From Chryseolinea sp. H1M3-3 (GTDB lineage: Bacteria; Bacteroidota; Bacteroidia; Cytophagales; Cyclobacteriaceae): a stretch of DNA of 64,000 nucleotides. This document shows, one piece after another, positions 38,621 through 47,552 of the stretch. The stretch spans positions 682,001 through 746,000 of the forward strand of contig NZ_JARKMY010000018.1 of NCBI RefSeq assembly GCF_029360725.1, given 5' to 3'. The number at the start of each line of letters is the position of its first letter. Positions within the stretch are counted from its first letter, which is position 1. The position numbers were made by a program, and so were the translations under genes. Under the pieces are notes generated by a model. The model saw only the letters and a list, made by a program, of their open reading frames with translations. It was not told the DNA's origin and searched no databases.

Positions 38621-38741
38621 GGGGCGTTGGATTGTGTTCAAAAATCAAAATACAGTATTTCCCGATAAAAATTTAAGCAAACCTTCTCAAATCTTTGTTG
38701 AGGGCAAGTTATCATCTGAAGGGTTTGATTTCAATAGGCTG

Positions 38742-39330
38742 CTTCGAAGTCTGTTATCCGGGTGTCTGCGTTTGTTGGCGACGCGTATACTTCGCGAAAC
38801 GCTAGTTGGGATCTATCAAACTGAAGTTTTTATTTATAAGCGTCTGCATTCAAAGCCTGTTATCCGAGAGCCTGCGGTTGTTGGTGGAGCTCACGCAAGG
38901 GGCTCTTCACAACACCAACAACGGCTGGGCGAGTGCTACTTCGAAGTCGGGTTATCCAGATGTCTGCAGTTATTAGTGACGCATACGCTTCGCGCAACAG
39001 CGTAGTTGGATCTATTAAATCGAAGTTTCTATTTTTAAGCGTCTGCATTCAAAACCTGTTATCGAGAGCCTGCGGTTGTTGGGGGAGCTCACGCAAGGGG
39101 CTCTTCACAACACCAACAACGGCTGGGCGAGTGCTACTTCGAAGTCGGGTTATCCAGATGTCTGCAGTTATTAGTGACGCATACGCTTCGCGCAACAACG
39201 TAGTTGGATCTATTAAATCGAAGTTTTTATTTTTAGCGTCTGCATTCAAAGCCTGTTATCCGAGAGCCTGCGGTTGTTGGTGGAGCTCGCGCACCAGGCT
39301 CCCGCAACACCAACAACGGCGGGCGCATCG
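38742..39330. repeat. 198-bp tandem repeat, three units, each carrying a hairpin
   Basis: Anchor GAGCCTGCGGTTGTTGG begins at 38868, 39066 and 39264, exactly 198 bp apart. The palindrome ACTTCGAAGT is at 38938 and 39136, with a diverged copy near 38751. Units two and three are nearly identical; the first is diverged. Each unit holds GTTGTTGGTG (38877-38886 and 39273-39282; one mismatch at 39075-39084) with CACCAACAAC (38913-38922, 39111-39120, 39308-39317), and an inner GAGC/GCTC. In unit three the loop differs but both stems are kept. Since 198 is a multiple of three, frames remain open on both strands (66 codons leftward), but I do not believe these are genes. Confidence 0.85.
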
Positions 39331-39371: not shown

Positions 39372-39947
39372 TCAATACGACTTATCCATGGATTTTTCGA
39401 ATATTGTTTCGTTACCAGGTCGATTGATCGCCGTAGCAATGATTTTGATTCCCGAGAACGCAGGTAGCGGCTGGGTGGTAACGTATGTCCATTCTTTGGT
39501 CCCGGGCTGATATTCAGCATCTCCAGCGTCGATGATACGGTCACCGTCCATGACAGTGATGGTGACCCGAATTGTTTTCAGGTTGTCGAAGACCACCACG
39601 GAAATTGTACTTCCGACAGACCCGGCAAATGCGGTTATCCTTACATCTAAAATTTTGGGAGGTATGAGATAGTCGCTTACAGCCTCGGATAATGCACTGC
39701 TGAACGGTTTATCGCCAGCCATCTGCTGATATGCAGCCTTTGCTACAGGGTCTTGCATTTTTACTTTCGCATATTCGGTAGCACGACCAAAGCGTTCGCG
39801 GTGTGCTATTTGTTTTACAGACAAGACCTGCTCGCTTGTTGACCTTCTTGTTGCTATGGTGACGCCACGTACCACACGAAATACGATTTTCTTTCCAAAC
39901 TTGCCGCTCATGCCTTCGGTCAAGTCGTTTTCTTTAATAATAGCCAT
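39372..39947 (-). CDS. unrecognised protein beginning MAIIKENDLTEGMSGKFG
   Basis: A 191-residue protein from ATG 39947; the longer frame to 40028 adds residues of low complexity. It lacks a signal peptide or membrane segment. The N-terminus is basic and Gly-rich (GMSGKFGKKIVFRVVRGVTIATRRS); residues 50-95 look helical (HRERFGRATEYAKVKMQDPVAKAA); the C-terminal third is beta-like, with TVMDGDRIIDAGDAEY and a closing AINRPGNETIFEKS. I have a general impression that short Bacteroidota proteins of this build exist, but know no function. It stands between the tandem repeat and the phased 11-bp repeats. Confidence 0.6.
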   Translation of the reverse strand: MAIIKENDLTEGMSGKFGKKIVFRVVRGVTIATRRSTSEQVLSVKQIAHRERFGRATEYAKVKMQDPVAKAAYQQMAGDKPFSSALSEAVSDYLIPPKILDVRITAFAGSVGSTISVVVFDNLKTIRVTITVMDGDRIIDAGDAEYQPGTKEWTYVTTQPLPAFSGIKIIATAINRPGNETIFEKSMDKSY

Positions 39948-40110
39948 GATAAAATAAAATTTAAGGTTAAGTAATTGATTTGGTATCGCCTCCCGATAGC
40001 CGCGGTGTTTCGTAGAAGTGATCCCCAAAAGTATAGCAGCAGGCCGAAACCTATTTTCGGGCTAATTTTTTTCTTAACTATCCCTTCCTTTTTTTAGACT
40101 GCCATAATTA

Positions 40111-40222: not shown

Positions 40223-41122
40223 ATGGAAGAGATTACTGGCTACGTCGTTGCCTATTATGCATGTTTTATACAATTGGTTAAAGATCCTTCCATCTTAGAT
40301 TTACGATCAAACCCCTTTTTGATGATCGTTTCGGTAAGGCTAGCTCAAGTATTTTTTGCCATCAGTCTAATATCATGGGCACTTCAGCATTTTATCTTAG
40401 GCGAATTTGTTACGGGCAGGCCGCCCCTGTGGCCGGAGGCATTACCCGGCAAATTGCTCTTTGCTTATGCTTGCGGAATTATTTTGCTGGTTGCCGGAAT
40501 CTCCATCCTTACTCACTGGAAACCTATACTTACCGTAACGTGTGCTGGCATGATAATTTTAGTGTGGGCGGCTTTGAGAAATATCTATGCGTTAATTATC
40601 AGCCTTGATTATGGTATTATACTCACGAATACAAACAAAGCGTTAACAATCGGATTTGGTGCGCTACTGGTCGCGTCTACGTTCAGAGATACTGAACCCA
40701 CAGTGACTAAATCCTTGCTTCAAAGGATCATTGACCGGTTAGCACCTTTGTCGAAGTATTTTATCGGATTGTTTTTACTCGTAAGCGGTATTCAACATTT
40801 CCTGTTCGCATCCTTTGTAAAGTTTCTTGTTCCTGCGTGGATTCCCTTTCCGGAGTTCTGGACATACCTGGCTGGGGTGGCCTTAATTGCAGGCGGACTT
40901 GGCATCATCACTAATATTCAGCGAAAACTTGCCGCTACGTTATCCGGCTATATGATTTTCATATGGCTGATCGTTCTTCATATTCCACGTGCATTGGGAG
41001 CAGAGGGAAATGCGAACGAAGTTACCGCTGTTTTTGAGGCCTTGGCGACGAGTTCGCTTTTGTTTATCATAGCGATGACATCGAATCGGGAGCAAAAGGA
41101 TGAGGATCTCAGTTCACGTTAG
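40223..41122 (+). CDS. DoxX-like membrane protein with internal duplication
   Basis: A 299-residue membrane protein with about eight hydrophobic segments. Two halves repeat the same DoxX-like pattern: LISWALQHFILGEFVTG with PLWPEALPGKLLFAYACGI in the first, and LLVSGIQHFLFASFVKFLVP with WIPFPEFWTYLAGVALIAGG in the second. DoxX relatives are usually single four-helix units of about 130-150 residues, so this is a tandem fusion. Proposed roles of DoxX proteins include quinone-linked or thiol redox chemistry; none is demonstrated here. It is a single-gene unit, with repeated elements upstream of its start. Confidence 0.65.
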   Translation: MEEITGYVVAYYACFIQLVKDPSILDLRSNPFLMIVSVRLAQVFFAISLISWALQHFILGEFVTGRPPLWPEALPGKLLFAYACGIILLVAGISILTHWKPILTVTCAGMIILVWAALRNIYALIISLDYGIILTNTNKALTIGFGALLVASTFRDTEPTVTKSLLQRIIDRLAPLSKYFIGLFLLVSGIQHFLFASFVKFLVPAWIPFPEFWTYLAGVALIAGGLGIITNIQRKLAATLSGYMIFIWLIVLHIPRALGAEGNANEVTAVFEALATSSLLFIIAMTSNREQKDEDLSSR

Positions 41123-41252: not shown

Positions 41253-42113
41253 TCAAACCACTTTCATATCTCCTGTTCCACTGCTGAAGACAAATTTATC
41301 TACGATTTTAGCATCGGTAAATACAGCATTCGCCTTGTCTATTCCTGCCTTCACTGAAATGGTTGTTATCGGTATCGCTTCTTGCATTGGGCGATATTGC
41401 TTCGCCGTATCGACGAGCTGATATCCCAATATGTTGTCGAGAAAAACCTCTAATGCTCTTGCGAAAAAATAAACCGGCGTCGTAAAGTTCTTGCCAGAAT
41501 CTGTGGTGATCACCGTCTTTTTCTTATTGGCAATATTACCGATGGATTGCTGAGAAGAACATGAAGCAATAAGAAAGGCAGTGGCAGCGTATCGTTTATG
41601 ATTTATCAGCTTAGTGAGTTCCTTATTCCTGATGACGTGGGCCAGGTACTTATTGTCTTTAGTCACCTTGACCCGGCAAGGATTTAACGGTGCCTCTATC
41701 AGTTTATTTGTGCGCTTATCAACCAGTGGAATTGTATGCCCGATATAGATCACCAGAGCGTTTTTTGAAAATAATGATGCAGTAAGATCCTTTGTTGCTT
41801 TTTTTATATTGCTCCCATCGATGATTACGTGAAGATTGATGCCGAGCATTTCCCATCTGTTTAAAATTGAGTCCTTCACATTTTTTCCGGTAATATACCA
41901 CTCAATAAAATCGTCGGTTGACTTTCCCGAAGTGATATCGTAGGTACCGAGGTACATATGTAAAAACACATCCGTAATCAGGTTGCTGGCCGGTTGTCCC
42001 TGGCCAGTACTTGTTGAACCAGCTTGTTTCGAATAAAGCGGTGCTGGTTTCTGGCTGTTGGTGTAACCACCACCGGGGCTTTGCCCCTGTGCATAGCCGA
42101 TATCATTTCCCAT
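41253..42113 (-). CDS. caspase-like (CHAT/peptidase C14-type) protein
   Basis: A 286-residue protein. Residues 1-45 are Gly/Ser/Gln-rich and probably disordered. The rest reads like a caspase-fold hydrolase: GINLHVIIDGSNIKKATKDL is followed by NALVIYIGHTIP with His126, then ELTKLINHKRYAATAFLIASCSSQQ with Cys185, and VITTDSGKNFTTPVYFFARAL, where caspases carry a post-catalytic strand and helix. The His-Cys spacing of 59 residues is plausible for the family. The usual GHG and DACHSG motifs are degenerate (GHT, IASCSS), so activity is not certain. It begins 3 bases after the stop of the large gene, implying translational coupling. Confidence 0.6.
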   Translation of the reverse strand: MGNDIGYAQGQSPGGGYTNSQKPAPLYSKQAGSTSTGQGQPASNLITDVFLHMYLGTYDITSGKSTDDFIEWYITGKNVKDSILNRWEMLGINLHVIIDGSNIKKATKDLTASLFSKNALVIYIGHTIPLVDKRTNKLIEAPLNPCRVKVTKDNKYLAHVIRNKELTKLINHKRYAATAFLIASCSSQQSIGNIANKKKTVITTDSGKNFTTPVYFFARALEVFLDNILGYQLVDTAKQYRPMQEAIPITTISVKAGIDKANAVFTDAKIVDKFVFSSGTGDMKVV

Positions 42114-42116
42114 ACG

Positions 42117-44936
42117 CTACGTCAAGGGATATTCGGGAAGTTTATCAGTCTCATTACGAAGGTAAACCAATTTGGTAGGGATAACGATCTCCCACGGCGT
42201 ACCGACAAACAGCGCACCTACGGCGTGTTTTAAATTTTGAGTACTCGTCCCTTCGTAATTTCTTTCTACTGTTATATTCCAGGAAGAAGTATTTGTTGCT
42301 ATAGCCTGTTCGATGCGTACGATGCGATAGATTTCATAGTCAACCAAAATCTCACGGTTGATATCATTTTCGAGGTTCAAGGAATGTATCTCATTGTTAA
42401 CCAAGTCCCAATAAAAAGTGCTATCGGTTAGTTTAAAAATGTTACTGCCACTTGTAACTTCAATCAAACCAGGTCTGTCTGTGTAATCACATTGCTTCGC
42501 TTCCTTTAATTCCTGAATCATGGAAACATATTCGTCATCACCGGACACGGGCGGCATTCCGCTTGAACCCCAAATCTGTCCGGTCTTCAGAAACCAGCTG
42601 AAGATTTCTTCCATACCGCGACGCACAGGAACCTGCAGTCTTGCTGCACCGGCCATTAAAAATTTATCAAACAACGGATCGCCTGAGTCTTCGTCTATCA
42701 GCTCGGGCCATTTACACTTCCGGGCCCACATACTGTGATAAAACAAATAGGTGAGATAATTCCATTCAAATACCTGTTCGAAAAATTGAATGACAGGCGC
42801 ATCCTTTTCCAGTTTTTCAAAATTGATCTCCGGATATCCGCAAGGGGACACCCGTTCCATCATCGAACCCATACCATTAAAATAATTGCACATCAGGATG
42901 GCAATTACATGGCGTTTTAATTCGTTCCTTTCAATTTCACGGTTCAGAAAGGGATTCCTTCCCTTTATCTGGACCAACGGACTCACCTCACTGTTTGCTG
43001 CTTTGAATGCTTCCAGTTTACGATTGTAATCGGCAGCAATCAGGTTATATATTTTCGCCTGCCATTTTTCAAATGCCTCGTCTGTAAGTTTACATTTTAG
43101 ACTGGCAGTTCCACTCAATGAAAATCCTAACGTGGTAAAGCCGGACAGAGAAAGTGTTACCGCGCCTTGCTCGCCGTTCATAGCAACTGTGCCCGAAGCC
43201 GGCCAATTAAAATTAGGTTGACCTCCACCCTGCGAGCGTTCATTCATGAAACGGTGGAATATTAAATCTTTTCCGACGTGTACAGATATTGCTGCTTCGT
43301 CGTAAGGGTCGGTACCCTTTGGATGTCCGGTTGAACACAAAATATTATAATCCAGCGCTACAACCTTATATCCATTTGGCACTTCGGGAGACCGAAAATC
43401 GTGCGATGAGAATCCAGCAGTTTTCCCCGCATCAGTTTCACTAACGTTTTGACTAAACGCAAATTGAATATAGATCACTTCTTCCGGCGGCTGGATTTCT
43501 TCTGTGGTAGCGATGGCGTATTGATTCAAAAAGTCTCCATAGTTAATTCTCGAAATTGCAAGCGGCGTAATAGCCGGCTTTTCGGGTTCATTTTTCTTCT
43601 TATCCTGGTCCTTTTTCAGTTGAAACAGTTTTTTAAAAGTTGCAGCGGGCTCGGGAACTATTAAGTCAAACATCATGTGTTTGCTTAGATTGAAAACCTG
43701 GGCATGTGTTACCTTGTTGACCCAGTAGTACATTCCAGCCCGATGAGTCGATCCGGCCTGGGTGTTGTCTATGCTATGTTTGTTGACTTCCTCCAGTTCG
43801 TTAATGATTTTGCTGATTTGAAGGCGTCTGACCTTTTCTTGTATTTTAGAAACAGAACGATCAATAATTTCTTTTGAATAAGCGCGGGCTATATTTTCTG
43901 ATTGTGACTTTGCAAAGTCACCTGTAACATTTGCATGTGGATTAATGGTAACAGCCTCGCCATATTTGATTGTCGCTGTCACGCCTGCATCAACATTCAC
44001 TTTCGAGTCAATGGTGTTTTTAACTTCCGATTGCAATGAAAATTTCTCGCCCACCTGGTGGTCTCTTTCCTCAACCGTAATCGTTTCATTTTCTGATTCA
44101 AGTGTATCTTCTGTCCGGTAGAAATTTCTGTGTCTCCGTACCTTTTTTTCACCTGCAAGAATATTTTCAATGTTAGCGATGTCACCAGCTTCGTACCTGG
44201 CAAGTTGTTCCTTTACGATAAACAAATCGGCTACATAAGTACGAATGCATATACAATGTCCGTTGGGCGATTGGCACGATTCATTGCATTTGCACTCACA
44301 GAGCCGGGCTCCGGCCGCATCGTTGGAAACAGGCGGCTTAGAAATCACAGACCTTGATTTGTCAGGGTTGTTTTCACAACATCTGGATCGTAGTACACCC
44401 GTTGGCAGTAATATGGGTAAAACTAATATTTCATTTAAAAGCCTTTCGCCACCTTTAACGCCCCACCCATCCGAAGTGAACGTGATGCAATGTTGATAGA
44501 CATGACATGTGCGGATGAGGCGTTGATAATCCAACGAATAATTCGAAGGCAGGTCGTTATTGTAGATCGACCAAAGCAAACTGTCTGCTATCCTCCGCCA
44601 CTCTTTAAGGAGATCAGGTTCCTCGTCTTCCTTGATGCCTTTAACAAATGCTTCAAAATCTATCCACTTGATGGGACGCGCTTTAAATCCGAACCACTCA
44701 TATAAAGCCAGAAGAATTGGGTGCACCTCACGTGTGCCGTAAATGAAATGCTTTGACTTGTCAAGGCGTTGGAAGATGGCGGCATATGCTGTTTTACCGC
44801 ATTCAATCTTTTTCAATTCATGTGACAAGTCAGACAAACTGTTGTCGGGGTACAATGGGATACCAACTTTAAACTTTTGTTCCGCGGGAAGTTTTTGAGC
44901 TTGTCTTAATTGCTGGAACCGGGTAATTTCTTCCAT
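42117..44936 (-). CDS. large unknown protein (939 aa) with Cys-rich knuckle and coiled coil, partner of the caspase-like gene
   Basis: ATG 44936 is chosen over TTG 44942. There is no signal peptide or clear membrane segment. Residues about 205-225 form a Cys cluster (LCECKCNESCQSPNGHCICI), which may bind metal. YEAGDIANIENILAGEKKVRR introduces a charged, probably coiled segment to about residue 395. A beta-rich middle (EEVIYIQFAFSQNV, DYNILCSTGHPKG) and later segments REIERNELKRHVIAILMC and AARLQVPVRRGMEEIF follow. I have a weak memory of similar large proteins with an AGEIAHIENVL-type element in diverse bacteria, but no function. Translation runs directly into the caspase-like gene, so the two probably act together. 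Confidence 0.6.
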   Translation of the reverse strand: MEEITRFQQLRQAQKLPAEQKFKVGIPLYPDNSLSDLSHELKKIECGKTAYAAIFQRLDKSKHFIYGTREVHPILLALYEWFGFKARPIKWIDFEAFVKGIKEDEEPDLLKEWRRIADSLLWSIYNNDLPSNYSLDYQRLIRTCHVYQHCITFTSDGWGVKGGERLLNEILVLPILLPTGVLRSRCCENNPDKSRSVISKPPVSNDAAGARLCECKCNESCQSPNGHCICIRTYVADLFIVKEQLARYEAGDIANIENILAGEKKVRRHRNFYRTEDTLESENETITVEERDHQVGEKFSLQSEVKNTIDSKVNVDAGVTATIKYGEAVTINPHANVTGDFAKSQSENIARAYSKEIIDRSVSKIQEKVRRLQISKIINELEEVNKHSIDNTQAGSTHRAGMYYWVNKVTHAQVFNLSKHMMFDLIVPEPAATFKKLFQLKKDQDKKKNEPEKPAITPLAISRINYGDFLNQYAIATTEEIQPPEEVIYIQFAFSQNVSETDAGKTAGFSSHDFRSPEVPNGYKVVALDYNILCSTGHPKGTDPYDEAAISVHVGKDLIFHRFMNERSQGGGQPNFNWPASGTVAMNGEQGAVTLSLSGFTTLGFSLSGTASLKCKLTDEAFEKWQAKIYNLIAADYNRKLEAFKAANSEVSPLVQIKGRNPFLNREIERNELKRHVIAILMCNYFNGMGSMMERVSPCGYPEINFEKLEKDAPVIQFFEQVFEWNYLTYLFYHSMWARKCKWPELIDEDSGDPLFDKFLMAGAARLQVPVRRGMEEIFSWFLKTGQIWGSSGMPPVSGDDEYVSMIQELKEAKQCDYTDRPGLIEVTSGSNIFKLTDSTFYWDLVNNEIHSLNLENDINREILVDYEIYRIVRIEQAIATNTSSWNITVERNYEGTSTQNLKHAVGALFVGTPWEIVIPTKLVYLRNETDKLPEYPLT

Positions 44937-45368
44937 ATACAAATTTTTATGTGCGGTTAAATTATTATTACTAAAGTTGAGCTGGAGGATGTTTACGCGA
45001 CCTATACAGTAACATGCTTACACCCTTAGTAACGACAACAAAAAGCCCACCCGTGCTAACTTTAAAAAAAGCTGCAACGGATGGGCTCCGTCGCTAAGGT
45101 AGAGAATTTAATTTATTTAGGAACTCCCGATGATTAGGGATGTCTTCTGAAACAACAGACCGATTCAAACAGGATTTTGGTTAGTCTGTGTTCGATGTTC
45201 TTGATCGATACTTAAAAACTGCATATCGAATATTGACACCCGAACAAGGAATGATGAGCGATCGCAAGTATCCTATACGTTGCAAAAGCACCATCAGTAC
45301 ACATCTGCCAGTGCCAAGGTCGTAAGCATCATCACAATAGACACGGCATACCGGATGCCACCAAACGC
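44937..45368. other. intergenic region between the unknown operon and the dehydrogenase
   Basis: Both neighbours are leftward, so this stretch holds the 3-prime end of the dehydrogenase transcript and the promoter of the unknown two-gene operon. A terminator hairpin at 45044-45087 lies within it. Short frames at 45181-45372 are not convincing genes. I see nothing else. Confidence 0.4.
45044..45087 (-). terminator. terminator hairpin downstream of the quinoprotein dehydrogenase
   Basis: AGCCCACCCGTGC (45044-45056) pairs with GCAACGGATGGGCT (45074-45087), with one mismatch and one bulged base. On the minus strand the stem is followed by TTTTTG. It is 280 bases past the dehydrogenase stop and directly before the promoter of the unknown operon, so it would separate the two transcripts. 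Confidence 0.6.
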
Positions 45369-47552
45369 TCAAGGCAAAGCAAACGCCATGATGGACCCTG
45401 CAGGATTTTCTTTGTCGCCAGCCACTGAGATTGCGACATATTGTTTGCCGTCGCTAAAGTAAGTACTTGGTGTAGCGTTAGCGACGGCAGGCAGGGTAGT
45501 TTCCCACAACAGCTCACCGCTGTCTTTATCGTATGCACGAAATTTCTTGTCGTGCGTACCACCGATAAATACAAGTCCACCGGCAGTGACGATAGGGCCA
45601 CCATAACCTTCGGAGCCCGTCTCAGGCGCACCCTTTTCCTGCAGCTCCGGATGGTTCCCTATAACAACTTTCCACCGATATTCGCCGGTATTCAAGTCGA
45701 TGGCATTCAACGCACCCCATGGCGGCTTAATCGCAGGTCGACCTTCAACATCATTGAAATGACTAAAGGCGGTAACATTCAAATAAACTGAAGTTGTATC
45801 CGCTGCTTTCTCAGGATTGTCACTAACGGCCAGCCTATTCGTATGGACCTCAAACAGGTCAGCTTCTTTTCGTGATGGACGTTGCGAGGTGATATCAAAA
45901 AGGTACGCAATGATAGATTCCTCATTTCCGTTGATCAAATTTTCAAATGCCGGCATTCGGCCGCTGCCTTGTTTAATTTTTGATAGTGTAGCCTCCTTTG
46001 TCAGTTTGTCTTTAATGTTTTGCAATGAAGGATAATCTGGTTCATTTCCGCGACGATCACGCCCGTGGCATCCGGCACAATGCTTCATGTAAATTGCTTT
46101 GCCCTGGTTGAAAGGCGATTGTGCCGAAATATTTTTTTCAGGACTAACTTTTTGCAAATGATCGATTTCGGGAGAGTCGGTTGACTTCACATAAAATGTT
46201 CCTGATGCGGGATCGAAGGCACCACCGCCCCAATTGGAGCCGCCGCGTGTTCCGGGAATCATTAATGTACCACGAAGATCGGGTGGCGTAAATAATCCTT
46301 CATAGCGCAGCGACCGGAATTTTTTTACGAGAGAATCATGCGCCACAGTCGTATAGCTGGTCAAATCATTTTCAGTCATGTGTTGACGTGAATACGGTGC
46401 AGGCTTCAAAGGAAATGGCTGCGTAGGCCACGCTTGCTCCCCAGGTACATATGAAGGGGGCACTTTTCGTTCTTCAATTGGAAATAACGGTATGCCTGTA
46501 TCACGATTCAGAACAAACAGAAATCCGGTTTTCGTTGTCTGTGCGACTGCGTCGATCTTTTTCCCCTCCTGTTCGACCGTCACGAGATTGGGAGGCGCCG
46601 GGAGATCATAATCCCAGAGATCGTGATGGACAGTTTGAAAATGCCATTTGTAAGTGCCCGTTCTTGCATCCAATGCTACAACGGAGTTACCATAAAGATT
46701 TTGGCCAATGCGGTCGCCTCCATAAAAATCATAAGAGGGTGAACCGAGCGCTAAAAATACCATACCCCGTTTTTCATCGAGACTCATACCCGCCCAGTCG
46801 TTTACCCCACCGACATATTTCCAAGCATCTTCTGGCCAGGTTTCATATCCCGGCTCCCCGGGATGAGGTATGGTATGAAAAGTCCATTCCAGTTTTCCCG
46901 TCAATATGTTATAGGCACGAATATACCCCGGTTCAGCTCCATACAGTTCTGAAACTTCTGCGCCGAGTATCAATAAATTTTCAAAAACAACTCCCGGAGA
47001 AGTTGGTATTACAGAAATTTTAGTGGGATCACCACGCAATCCGACGTTCATGCTGACCTTGCCGCCTGTTCCGAATGTCTTGATCAATTCTCCCGTCAAC
47101 GCATTTTGTGCAAAAAGATTATCACCGGCGGTGTAGAGTATGCGTTTGTCATCACCATTTTCCCAATAAGCAACGCTACGGTATACGCCGCCTCCTTCTC
47201 CCCCATCAAACGGATCAAACGACCACATTTTTTCACCCGTCGAAGCGTTGATGGCATACAATCTATGCCGGGCCGATGTGGCGTACATTACACCGTCAAT
47301 GATGATAGGATTGCATTCGCTATTGGAGATTCTTTCTTTACTGCGGGCGTCGTTGGGATAGAAGGTCCACGCTGGCTGTAAATTTTTTACATTGCTTTTG
47401 TTAATCTCCTCCAGCGGCGAATAGCTTGTGCTTGCCGCGTCCGCTTTATACATGCTCCAGGTTCTGGTCTTTTGATCAGATCTGCAACCTGCCGCTGCGA
47501 ATAAAACGATATAAAAAACTACTGAACCGTATTTCCCTAGAAGAAAATTCAT
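45369..47552 (-). CDS. quinoprotein (PQQ-type) dehydrogenase with embedded cytochrome c, lipoprotein
   Basis: A 727-residue lipoprotein (AAAGC, Cys23). The eight-bladed propeller of PQQ dehydrogenases is evident: WSMYKADAASTSYSPLEEIN, then AWTFYPND, LYAINASTGEKMWSF, GSPSYDFYGGDRIG, HFQTVHHDLWDYDLPAPPNL and, at the end, GGLVFIGGTHDKKFRAYD. These fit the membrane-bound glucose/quinate dehydrogenase group. A cytochrome c domain is inserted at about 480-560: KHCAGCHG with Cys492, Cys495 and His496, and MPAFENL providing an axial Met. It would oxidise a sugar or alcohol in the periplasm and pass electrons through its own haem to the respiratory chain. Whether the cell makes PQQ cannot be seen here. 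Confidence 0.85.
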   Translation of the reverse strand: MNFLLGKYGSVVFYIVLFAAAGCRSDQKTRTWSMYKADAASTSYSPLEEINKSNVKNLQPAWTFYPNDARSKERISNSECNPIIIDGVMYATSARHRLYAINASTGEKMWSFDPFDGGEGGGVYRSVAYWENGDDKRILYTAGDNLFAQNALTGELIKTFGTGGKVSMNVGLRGDPTKISVIPTSPGVVFENLLILGAEVSELYGAEPGYIRAYNILTGKLEWTFHTIPHPGEPGYETWPEDAWKYVGGVNDWAGMSLDEKRGMVFLALGSPSYDFYGGDRIGQNLYGNSVVALDARTGTYKWHFQTVHHDLWDYDLPAPPNLVTVEQEGKKIDAVAQTTKTGFLFVLNRDTGIPLFPIEERKVPPSYVPGEQAWPTQPFPLKPAPYSRQHMTENDLTSYTTVAHDSLVKKFRSLRYEGLFTPPDLRGTLMIPGTRGGSNWGGGAFDPASGTFYVKSTDSPEIDHLQKVSPEKNISAQSPFNQGKAIYMKHCAGCHGRDRRGNEPDYPSLQNIKDKLTKEATLSKIKQGSGRMPAFENLINGNEESIIAYLFDITSQRPSRKEADLFEVHTNRLAVSDNPEKAADTTSVYLNVTAFSHFNDVEGRPAIKPPWGALNAIDLNTGEYRWKVVIGNHPELQEKGAPETGSEGYGGPIVTAGGLVFIGGTHDKKFRAYDKDSGELLWETTLPAVANATPSTYFSDGKQYVAISVAGDKENPAGSIMAFALP

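What the first reader, a model, noticed from the sequence alone, without database searches (positions are those of the whole stretch)
41253..44936. Two-gene operon of a caspase-like protein and a large Cys-rich unknown protein
The 939-residue gene stops 3 bases before the caspase-like gene starts, so the two proteins are likely made in fixed ratio. The smaller protein has a plausible caspase dyad (His126 and Cys185) with the surrounding strand and helix pattern. The larger has a metal-binding-type Cys cluster, a coiled coil and several short conserved-looking elements but no domain I recognise. Paired with a caspase-like hydrolase, it could be a sensor, a scaffold or a substrate, as in bacterial caspase defence systems.
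Basis: partly seen in the sequence, partly recalled or inferred. Interest (0 to 1): 0.72.

Follow-up and report, generated by a model that had tools for sequence, protein, structure and literature searches.

The report
Swappable enzyme paired with pore-like carrier
The big protein belongs to a widespread bacterial and archaeal family, for which we found no description, that sits next to an exchangeable enzyme (here a caspase-like protein) and looks like a pore that could carry that enzyme across a membrane.

Summary
The operon is real: a 939-residue gene (CORE) ends 3 bases before a 286-residue gene with a caspase-type His126/Cys185 pair. CORE residues 237-828 are a conserved module without a Pfam, NCBIfam or PDB family; 385 stretches in genome contigs encode it (capped list), and the 80 kept span 14 named phyla, one archaeal. 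The gene after CORE varies: protein-arginine deiminase, patatin, phospholipase D, amidase, M23 peptidase, Het-C, Ntox28, C14 caspase and others, exchanged repeatedly on the CORE tree. So this pair is one instance of a constant-partner/variable-effector system. The only clear homologue of the small protein also sits beside a CORE and keeps both residues; in the window's subfamily, cargo of different kinds shares a Tyr/Gly/Gln-rich N-terminal tail, a putative loading tag. CORE has very long predicted strands and, inside a low-confidence insert, the module's strongest beta-amphipathic signal around a conserved turn, as in pore hairpins. Best explanation: CORE is a beta-pore-type carrier for the neighbouring enzyme; pore, delivery and target are inferred, not shown. 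The caspase call is probably right (poor model); the defence role is unproven. Main rival: an intracellular cell-death system.

The parts
42117..44936 (-). CORE gene, 939 aa from ATG (941 aa from TTG at 44942; residue numbers in this report use the 941-aa form)
   Evidence: open frame; homologues
44886..44933 (-). N-terminal stretch of CORE (EEITRFQQLRQAQKLP), a divergent form of the family's LFRFVxLRPP-like start
   Evidence: a pattern chosen after seeing the data matches 52 of 92 COREs; L015 and L016, the nearest relatives, do not match it either
44247..44300 (-). Cys cluster CxCxCxxxC...CxC, residues 215-232, putative metal site
   Evidence: conserved in window, L015, L016, L020, L023; in 75 COREs with the anchor motif the matching 75-aa stretch holds a median of 0 Cys and at most 4 outside L020 and L023
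42459..44234 (-). Conserved CORE module, residues 237-828
   Evidence: no Pfam/NCBIfam/PDB family
43914..44009 (-). Putative membrane beta-hairpin, residues 312-343, turn at Y327-G328
   Evidence: largest beta-amphipathic excess over shuffles in the module, low charge, inside the low-confidence insert 281-375
42207..42473 (-). C-terminal inserted domain, residues 824-912, phage tail-fibre type by alignment with relatives
   Evidence: L017, L018, L021, L024 match phrog_1980 (tail fibre) in the corresponding stretch (E 5e-7 to 0.003); window, L015, L020, L022, L023, L025 do not match it; alignment
41253..42113 (-). Cargo gene: caspase-like (clan CD-like) protein, 286 aa
41988..42113 (-). Tyr/Gly/Gln/Ser/Pro-rich N-terminal tail of the cargo, putative loading tag
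   Evidence: similar tails on cargo in L015 and L016
41736..41738 (-). His126 codon
   Evidence: conserved in L015 homologue; position checked
41559..41561 (-). Cys185 codon
   Evidence: conserved in L015 homologue; position checked

Best explanation
The locus is a constant-partner/variable-effector system. CORE is a protein without a recognisable signal peptide that oligomerises and inserts a beta-hairpin from each subunit into a membrane, forming a beta-barrel pore. The enzyme encoded next door is its cargo: it binds CORE (in this subfamily probably through its Tyr/Gly/Gln-rich N-terminal tail and CORE's variable N-terminal part) and is carried to or through the membrane of a target cell, where it acts. 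In this window the cargo is a caspase-like cysteine protease. Shown: the constant module, the variable neighbour, cargo exchange, conservation of His/Cys in the one homologue, similar tails, the amphipathic hairpin pattern. Inferred: oligomerisation, pore, binding, translocation, target cell, proteolysis.
For: Constant module: 385 stretches encode it (capped list), the 80 kept spanning 14 named phyla. A same-strand ORF of 200 aa or more starts -30 to +60 nt from the CORE stop in 55 of 86 loci, against 4 of 86 on the opposite strand and 19 of 86 on the upstream side. Of 36 neighbour proteins chosen for scanning, 12 match a Pfam family over its cut-off, in ten kinds: C14 caspase, PLD x2, PAD x2, Amidase_3 with SPOR, M23, patatin, Het-C, Ntox28, PT-TG, DUF2515. 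On a tree of 89 COREs (63 labelled, 19 classes) cargo class needs at least 23 changes where 18 is the least possible; starred branches force more than one origin for PAD, the 361-aa class, patatin, PLD, Het-C, M23 and the 386-aa class. The L039 cargo amidase begins at residue 7 without a signal peptide, yet its substrate lies outside the cytoplasm (recalled). By a crude test none of 92 COREs starts like a signal peptide. CORE model: strands of 17 to 30 residues flank a low-confidence insert; in that insert seven of the module's eight largest beta-amphipathic excesses over shuffles lie at 316-332 (z 15-17), windows with 6-21% charged residues on both sides of a conserved Y-G turn. Tail-fibre-type domain in some COREs. 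Tails of cargo of different kinds: 0 of 500 shuffles reach the observed score in 4 of 10 pairs.
Against: No CORE member matches a known pore-forming or translocation family. The fold search is weak: top hits are short matches to phage-tail and viral capsid proteins; one binary-toxin pore (9jsg) is at rank 33 with TM 0.08-0.12 and probability 0.63, which is not a match. Raw beta-moments at 295-300 and 365-366, in highly charged stretches, are as high as in the hairpin, and the 67 sequences are related, so the z-scores overstate independent evidence. 24 of 36 scanned neighbours have no Pfam family over cut-off. 1 of 73 first-neighbour ORFs (L059) does begin like a signal peptide. Seven split-CORE loci carry a Trypco1-type gene, known from intracellular conflict systems. 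No secretion route is identified. Two of ten tail pairs have p 0.072 and 0.082, one 0.046, without correction for many tests.
Confidence: 0.5

Rival explanations
1. Intracellular conflict (cell-death) system: CORE is a sensor, adaptor or membrane-damaging part inside the producer, and the neighbouring enzyme is the effector that kills or arrests the infected cell.
For: Trypco1-type genes beside 7 of 7 split COREs (4 of 4 scanned match Pfam; the seven are related); Trypco1 was named in conflict systems with peptidase effectors (PMC7159879, passages; also PMC10907252, passages). PADLOC effector-type models match 3 of 10 proteins scanned: caspase L020, phospholipase L040, DrmC-type L033. No signal peptides by a crude test; the window unit has no immunity gene.
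Against: Neither window protein matches a PADLOC model; the window unit has no third component; peptidoglycan hydrolases and Ntox28 occur among cargo; tail-fibre-type domain in some COREs.
Confidence: 0.28
2. Protease-activated pore, as in bacterial gasdermin operons (recalled): the small protease cleaves CORE and thereby frees its pore-forming part.
For: Caspase-like gene after a pore-like protein in the window and L015 (second cargo gene there) and, as second gene, in L020.
Against: Many neighbours are not proteases, so cleavage cannot be the general mode; none of the four Pfam families that matched any of 68 COREs is a gasdermin.
Confidence: 0.1
3. CORE is a carrier or adaptor for a contractile injection system (eCIS or T6SS) rather than a pore.
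For: Phage tail-fibre-type domain in some COREs.
Against: A sheath match at E 0.001 in 6 of 12 CORE-bearing genomes (4 over the family's cut-off) and none in the window's own genome.
Confidence: 0.07
4. The small protein is not a protease; the His/Cys pair is coincidental or a remnant and the protein is a structural partner of CORE. (This rival concerns the cargo and can hold together with any of the others.)
For: Only two sequences known, low-confidence model, no profile match.
Against: Both residues conserved at 24% (BLAST) to 34% (MAFFT) identity, CHAT as best fold match, other CORE loci carry His/Cys cargo including a clear C14 caspase.
Confidence: 0.2

Closest known systems
Binary (A-B) toxins with a pore-forming B component and a separately encoded enzyme A (C2/iota type; recalled)
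   Same: Constant pore-like component beside a separate enzyme; long strands with an amphipathic hairpin
   Different: None of the four Pfam families that matched any of 68 COREs is of this kind; one fold hit to such a pore is far too weak; wider range of organisms and cargo
[quoted passage not shown] 2012, PMC3482391; passages seen)
   Same: Constant part with exchangeable toxic domains; overlapping cargo (caspase, Het-C, Ntox28)
   Different: Cargo is a separate gene, not the C-terminus of one polypeptide; the constant part is none of the trafficking domains in the passages seen; no immunity gene in the window unit
NTP-dependent conflict systems with Trypco1 (eLife 2020, PMC7159879; passages seen)
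   Same: Trypco1-type component beside split COREs; caspase-type effectors; constant parts with variable effectors
   Different: No AAA+/MoxR/vWA family among the 36 neighbours scanned; not searched further out, and the record of L007 lists an 'ATP-binding protein' downstream of its patatin
SAVED-CHAT / CHAT caspase-like proteases (PDB 8tl0)
   Same: Best fold match of the cargo; His/Cys dyad
   Different: Window cargo is 286 aa with no room for a SAVED sensor; match is weak because the model is poor
Bacterial gasdermin-protease operons (recalled)
   Same: Pore-like protein next to a caspase-like protease
   Different: Cargo class varies; no gasdermin match of CORE

Membership tests
Clan CD (caspase-like) peptidases | His and Cys catalytic dyad after adjacent core strands, conserved among homologues | tested here: met
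   H126 and C185 conserved in the L015 homologue; strand-H and strand-C in the model. Only one homologue known.
Clan CD (caspase-like) peptidases | Caspase-haemoglobinase fold | tested here: inconclusive
   pLDDT 42; best PDB match SAVED-CHAT prob 0.80, E 0.013
Clan CD (caspase-like) peptidases | Profile match to C14/CHAT or relatives | tested here: not met
   no Pfam match at E 1; PDB sequence search gave two unrelated chance hits, the profile none
Clan CD (caspase-like) peptidases | Cys-dependent proteolysis | not testable with these tools
   needs assay
Binary-toxin B components / other known beta-pore toxins | Sequence profile of a known pore family | tested here: not met
   no such match among 68 COREs at E 0.01 in Pfam or NCBIfam; that the libraries hold such models is recalled
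Binary-toxin B components / other known beta-pore toxins | Amphipathic beta-hairpin flanked by long stem strands | tested here: met
   (pattern only; membrane insertion not shown)
Binary-toxin B components / other known beta-pore toxins | Same fold as a solved pore | tested here: inconclusive
   weak Foldseek hits; model mean pLDDT 71 with 281-375 below 50
Polymorphic toxin system | Constant component with exchangeable toxic cargo | tested here: met
   exchange shown; toxicity of the cargo is inferred from families
Polymorphic toxin system | Cargo fused at the C-terminus of the constant part | tested here: not met
   window cargo is a separate gene; no toxin domain in any of 68 COREs scanned to their C-terminus
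Polymorphic toxin system | Immunity gene next to the toxin | tested here: inconclusive
   window unit has only two genes; L090 Ntox28 cargo is followed by a 172-aa gene, not identified
Known anti-phage defence system | PADLOC model match of the unit | tested here: not met
   0 for both window proteins; 3 of 10 proteins of other loci match effector-type models
eCIS/T6SS effector | Contractile sheath in the genome | tested here: not met
   none in G000; E 0.001 match in 6 of 12 CORE genomes, 4 over cut-off

The most novel reading that the evidence does not exclude
CORE is a new, cross-phylum family of beta-barrel protein-delivery pores, found in bacteria and archaea, that carry separately encoded, freely exchanged enzymes recognised by short docking tails: a general two-gene 'pore plus payload' weapon in environmental prokaryotes, with clan CD proteases, deiminases, phospholipases and cell-wall hydrolases as payloads.
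Probability: 0.35. Interest if true: 0.9.

Novelty: new variant of a known kind. Interest (0 to 1): 0.74.

Why it matters
A conserved protein module, encoded in hundreds of genomic stretches from at least 14 phyla, has no family model in the Pfam and NCBIfam copies searched and no name that we could find, yet it stands beside a very wide set of effector enzymes. If it is a delivery pore, it would add a general route by which enzymes without signal peptides reach other cells, with cargo predictable from gene adjacency. If it is an internal death system, it would be a large unrecognised one. Either way a pull-down and a liposome test would show the direction, and the cargo tails give a handle on how payloads are chosen.

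Tried and rejected
Isomerase hit of the large protein (Lyx_isomer, E 0.033, below cut-off): chance. Single-sequence scan of genome contigs: no relative, because its patterns came from unconserved parts; repeated with an alignment. Phage records: no match. Co-occurrence with a contractile sheath: not general. Profile comparison of the small protein's pair alignment with the 361-aa His/Cys cargo family: no similarity, so their common clan is judged from the H/C pattern only. PDB sequence searches for CORE and the two His/Cys alignments: nothing beyond chance; two unknown cargo families likewise. Locating an empty site in congeners: the flanking dehydrogenase is present in all five, but the genes next to it differ, so no clean empty site. 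Literature: ten searches, of which I saw the listings, showed no paper on this family; passages of three papers were seen. The library lacks most subscription papers and preprints, so this is weak evidence of novelty. The glycoside-hydrolase nature of one L016 cargo rests on a weak PDB match (E 7e-4) plus recall.

Dropped rows: L060 is missing from the 92 loci because its CORE frame runs open to the contig end. L005 (other strand), L014, L015, L016 and L034 were left out of the module set (87 rows); L015 and the window were added for the tree (89 rows). L014, L016 and L034 have CORE in two pieces. The structure alignment A3 holds the window and 67 loci of the two related-loci scans; left out were loci from other tools, near-copies, L069, L016, L034, L060 and the two Legionella loci. 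Several first-downstream ORFs in GC-rich loci are likely wrong frames (for example L007, L012, L031, L058, L067, L093); for L031, L067 and L058 the real gene was checked, for L007 the record's annotation. Tree labels come partly from BLAST clusters; the cargo of L008 and L067 lies upstream of CORE. For the tail test the L016 second cargo was read from an internal Met that fits the other tails, not from its first start.
Full report
OBSERVATION. One search lists both frames. The large gene (here CORE) runs 42117-44936 from ATG, or from a TTG at 44942; residue numbers below use the 941-aa form. The small gene runs 41253-42113, three bases after the CORE stop. H126 and C185 are as stated. The unit has two genes: the next gene downstream (40223-41122) is on the other strand, and the next large one upstream (45369-47552, a PQQ-dehydrogenase-like protein by inspection) lies about 430 bases away. 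Neither protein matches Pfam above its cut-off, and neither matches PHROGs or PADLOC.

THE LARGE PROTEIN IS A WIDESPREAD FAMILY. Of 59 genomes searched (the own included) two have a match: the own and one congener, where CORE has a different, 1660-aa neighbour. A tblastn of plasmids found 14 records from Alphaproteobacteria, Betaproteobacteria, Gammaproteobacteria, Actinomycetota, Bacteroidota and a haloarchaeon; 13 match through residues of about 237-825 or most of them, the last through 620-842. Phage records gave none. These 80 fall in 14 named phyla, one archaeal, plus one without a name. Three contigs of a viral collection also carry it. In 296 Bacteroidota genomes (the own included) 11 have it, up to four copies each, so it is an accessory gene. 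No member of a 68-row alignment has a meaningful Pfam or NCBIfam match, and the profile finds nothing in the PDB. The seven fetched plasmid records that carry annotation call it hypothetical protein.

ITS NEIGHBOUR IS VARIABLE. Of 92 loci with a closed CORE frame, 84 have a same-strand ORF of 60 aa or more starting within -90 to +130 nt of the CORE stop, median gap 13 nt; some of these are wrong frames in GC-rich DNA. With a stricter rule (200 aa or more, -30 to +60 nt, 800 nt of sequence on both sides) 55 of 86 qualify, against 4 of 86 for the opposite strand and 19 of 86 for the upstream side. I chose 36 neighbour proteins for Pfam; 12 match over cut-off: C14 caspase (L020, second gene), PLD (L022, L033), PAD (L056, L075), Amidase_3 with SPOR (L039), M23 (L047), patatin (L040), Het-C (L041), Ntox28 (L090), PT-TG pre-toxin (L029) and DUF2515 (L015); 24 have none over cut-off. 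BLAST clusters extend these labels: patatin ORFs in 7 loci, PAD in 7 (an eighth, L058), a 361-aa His/Cys family in 6 (two more, L031 and L067) and others. On a quick tree (LG+G4, SH-aLRT only) of 89 COREs, 63 labelled in 19 classes, at least 23 changes of cargo class are needed (18 is the least possible; shuffled mean 49), and starred branches force more than one origin for PAD, the 361-aa class, patatin, M23, the 386-aa class, Het-C and PLD. So cargo is mostly inherited with CORE and repeatedly exchanged; a clear case is L039 (amidase) beside L067 (361-aa class, upstream in that locus).

THE CASPASE-LIKE CARGO. The only clear homologue is the second cargo gene of Sphingomonas sp. LaA6.9 (L015), E 1.7e-11, with H and C conserved. 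No other came from 296 Bacteroidota genomes. The structure predicted from two sequences is poor (pLDDT 42) but has strand-His126 and strand-Cys185 in the clan CD order; Foldseek puts the SAVED-CHAT protease first (probability 0.80, E 0.013, TM 0.33) and the next match at 0.18. Other CORE loci carry His/Cys cargo: the C14 caspase of L020, the second cargo of L016 (DUF4347 match below cut-off, E 0.0056) and the 361-aa family. A profile comparison did not link the 361-aa family to the window protein. I put the probability of a clan CD protease at about 0.8.

THE TAIL. In the window's subfamily (window, L015, L016) the five cargo proteins begin with a stretch rich in Tyr, Gly, Gln, Asn, Ser and Pro, although their bodies are of at least three kinds (caspase-like, DUF2515, and a weak match to a cellulase-type enzyme). 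Of ten pairs of tails, four are never matched in 500 shuffles of the same letters, four have p between 0.006 and 0.046, and two are 0.072 and 0.082, uncorrected. I read the tail as a docking or loading tag. This is an inference.

THE ARCHITECTURE OF CORE. The N-terminal third varies between subfamilies but often starts with a motif like LFRFVxLRPP (52 of 92 by a pattern chosen after seeing the data). In seven loci the N-terminal part is a separate upstream gene, so it is separable; all seven have a related small gene beside them, and 4 of 4 scanned match Trypco1. The window, L015, L016, L020 and L023 share a Cys cluster at the junction; elsewhere few or no Cys are found there. The model of the window CORE (mean pLDDT 71, pTM 0.52) has strands 234-261, 266-282, 374-390 and 401-430, an insert 281-375 with pLDDT under 50, several strands between 489 and 619 and helices 621-684. 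In that insert, across 67 relatives, the beta-amphipathic moment exceeds its shuffles more than elsewhere in the module (seven of the eight largest z-scores, 15 to 17, at 316-332), where charge falls to 6-21% per window from mostly 25-55% around it, with the conserved turn Y327-G328. Raw moments in charged stretches at 295-300 and 365-366 are equally high. The low-charge double stretch with a turn is the sequence pattern of a membrane beta-hairpin of pore formers (recalled). Fold search was not decisive: phage-tail and viral capsid proteins first, one binary-toxin pore at rank 33 with TM 0.08-0.12. In 12 of 68 COREs, the window included, the C-terminal part is longer by an inserted domain that in four relatives matches a phage tail-fibre family, best E 5.4e-7; the window itself does not.

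MECHANISM. Shown are a constant module, an adjacent exchangeable enzyme, no signal-like start in any of 92 COREs by a crude test, and a peptidoglycan amidase without a signal peptide among the cargo. A carrier that makes a pore explains them together. An internal death system explains the Trypco1 link and the caspase, patatin and PLD cargo, but less well the cell-wall hydrolases and Ntox28. A protease-activated pore is possible for this window but cannot be general. Published work notes that constant components in polymorphic toxin systems serve trafficking of the effectors (PMC7159879, passage), and that caspase-like and Het-C domains occur as toxins of such systems (PMC3482391, passages).

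NOVELTY. Ten literature searches, seen as listings, showed no description of this family, in a library that lacks most subscription papers and preprints. As a kind, constant part plus variable effector is known; this constant part, as a separate pore-like protein with separate cargo genes and tails, is not one I can match. I therefore call it a new variant of a known kind.

Noticed in passing
L041, L049, L053, L068, L072, L073, L085: In all seven loci where CORE is split into two genes, a related 107-113 aa gene sits beside it; four of four scanned match Trypco1.
   Followed up: partly
L005:1695-6677 and L088:10792-13812: A 1660-aa and a 1007-aa cargo of one unknown family, in a congener of the window's organism and in a cyanobacterium.
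   Followed up: no
L090:11716-14256 and following gene: Ntox28 cargo in Chryseobacterium defluvii is followed by a 172-aa gene that could be its immunity protein.
   Followed up: no
L095-L097: CORE on three contigs classed as viral in IMG/VR; may be prophage or mis-sorted host DNA.
   Followed up: no
L007 (Natronorubrum bangense plasmid): A haloarchaeal plasmid carries CORE followed by a patatin, so the system crosses domains.
   Followed up: partly
window 38738-39325: Three copies of a 198-bp tandem repeat, 90% alike, in the stretch between two genes.
   Followed up: no
window 39372-40028 (-): A 218-aa protein without a Pfam match near the operon.
   Followed up: no
window 45369-47552 (-): The dehydrogenase-like gene next to the operon has a homologue (62-81% identity) in all five congeners searched; the stretches taken around it show no CORE beside it.
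   Followed up: partly
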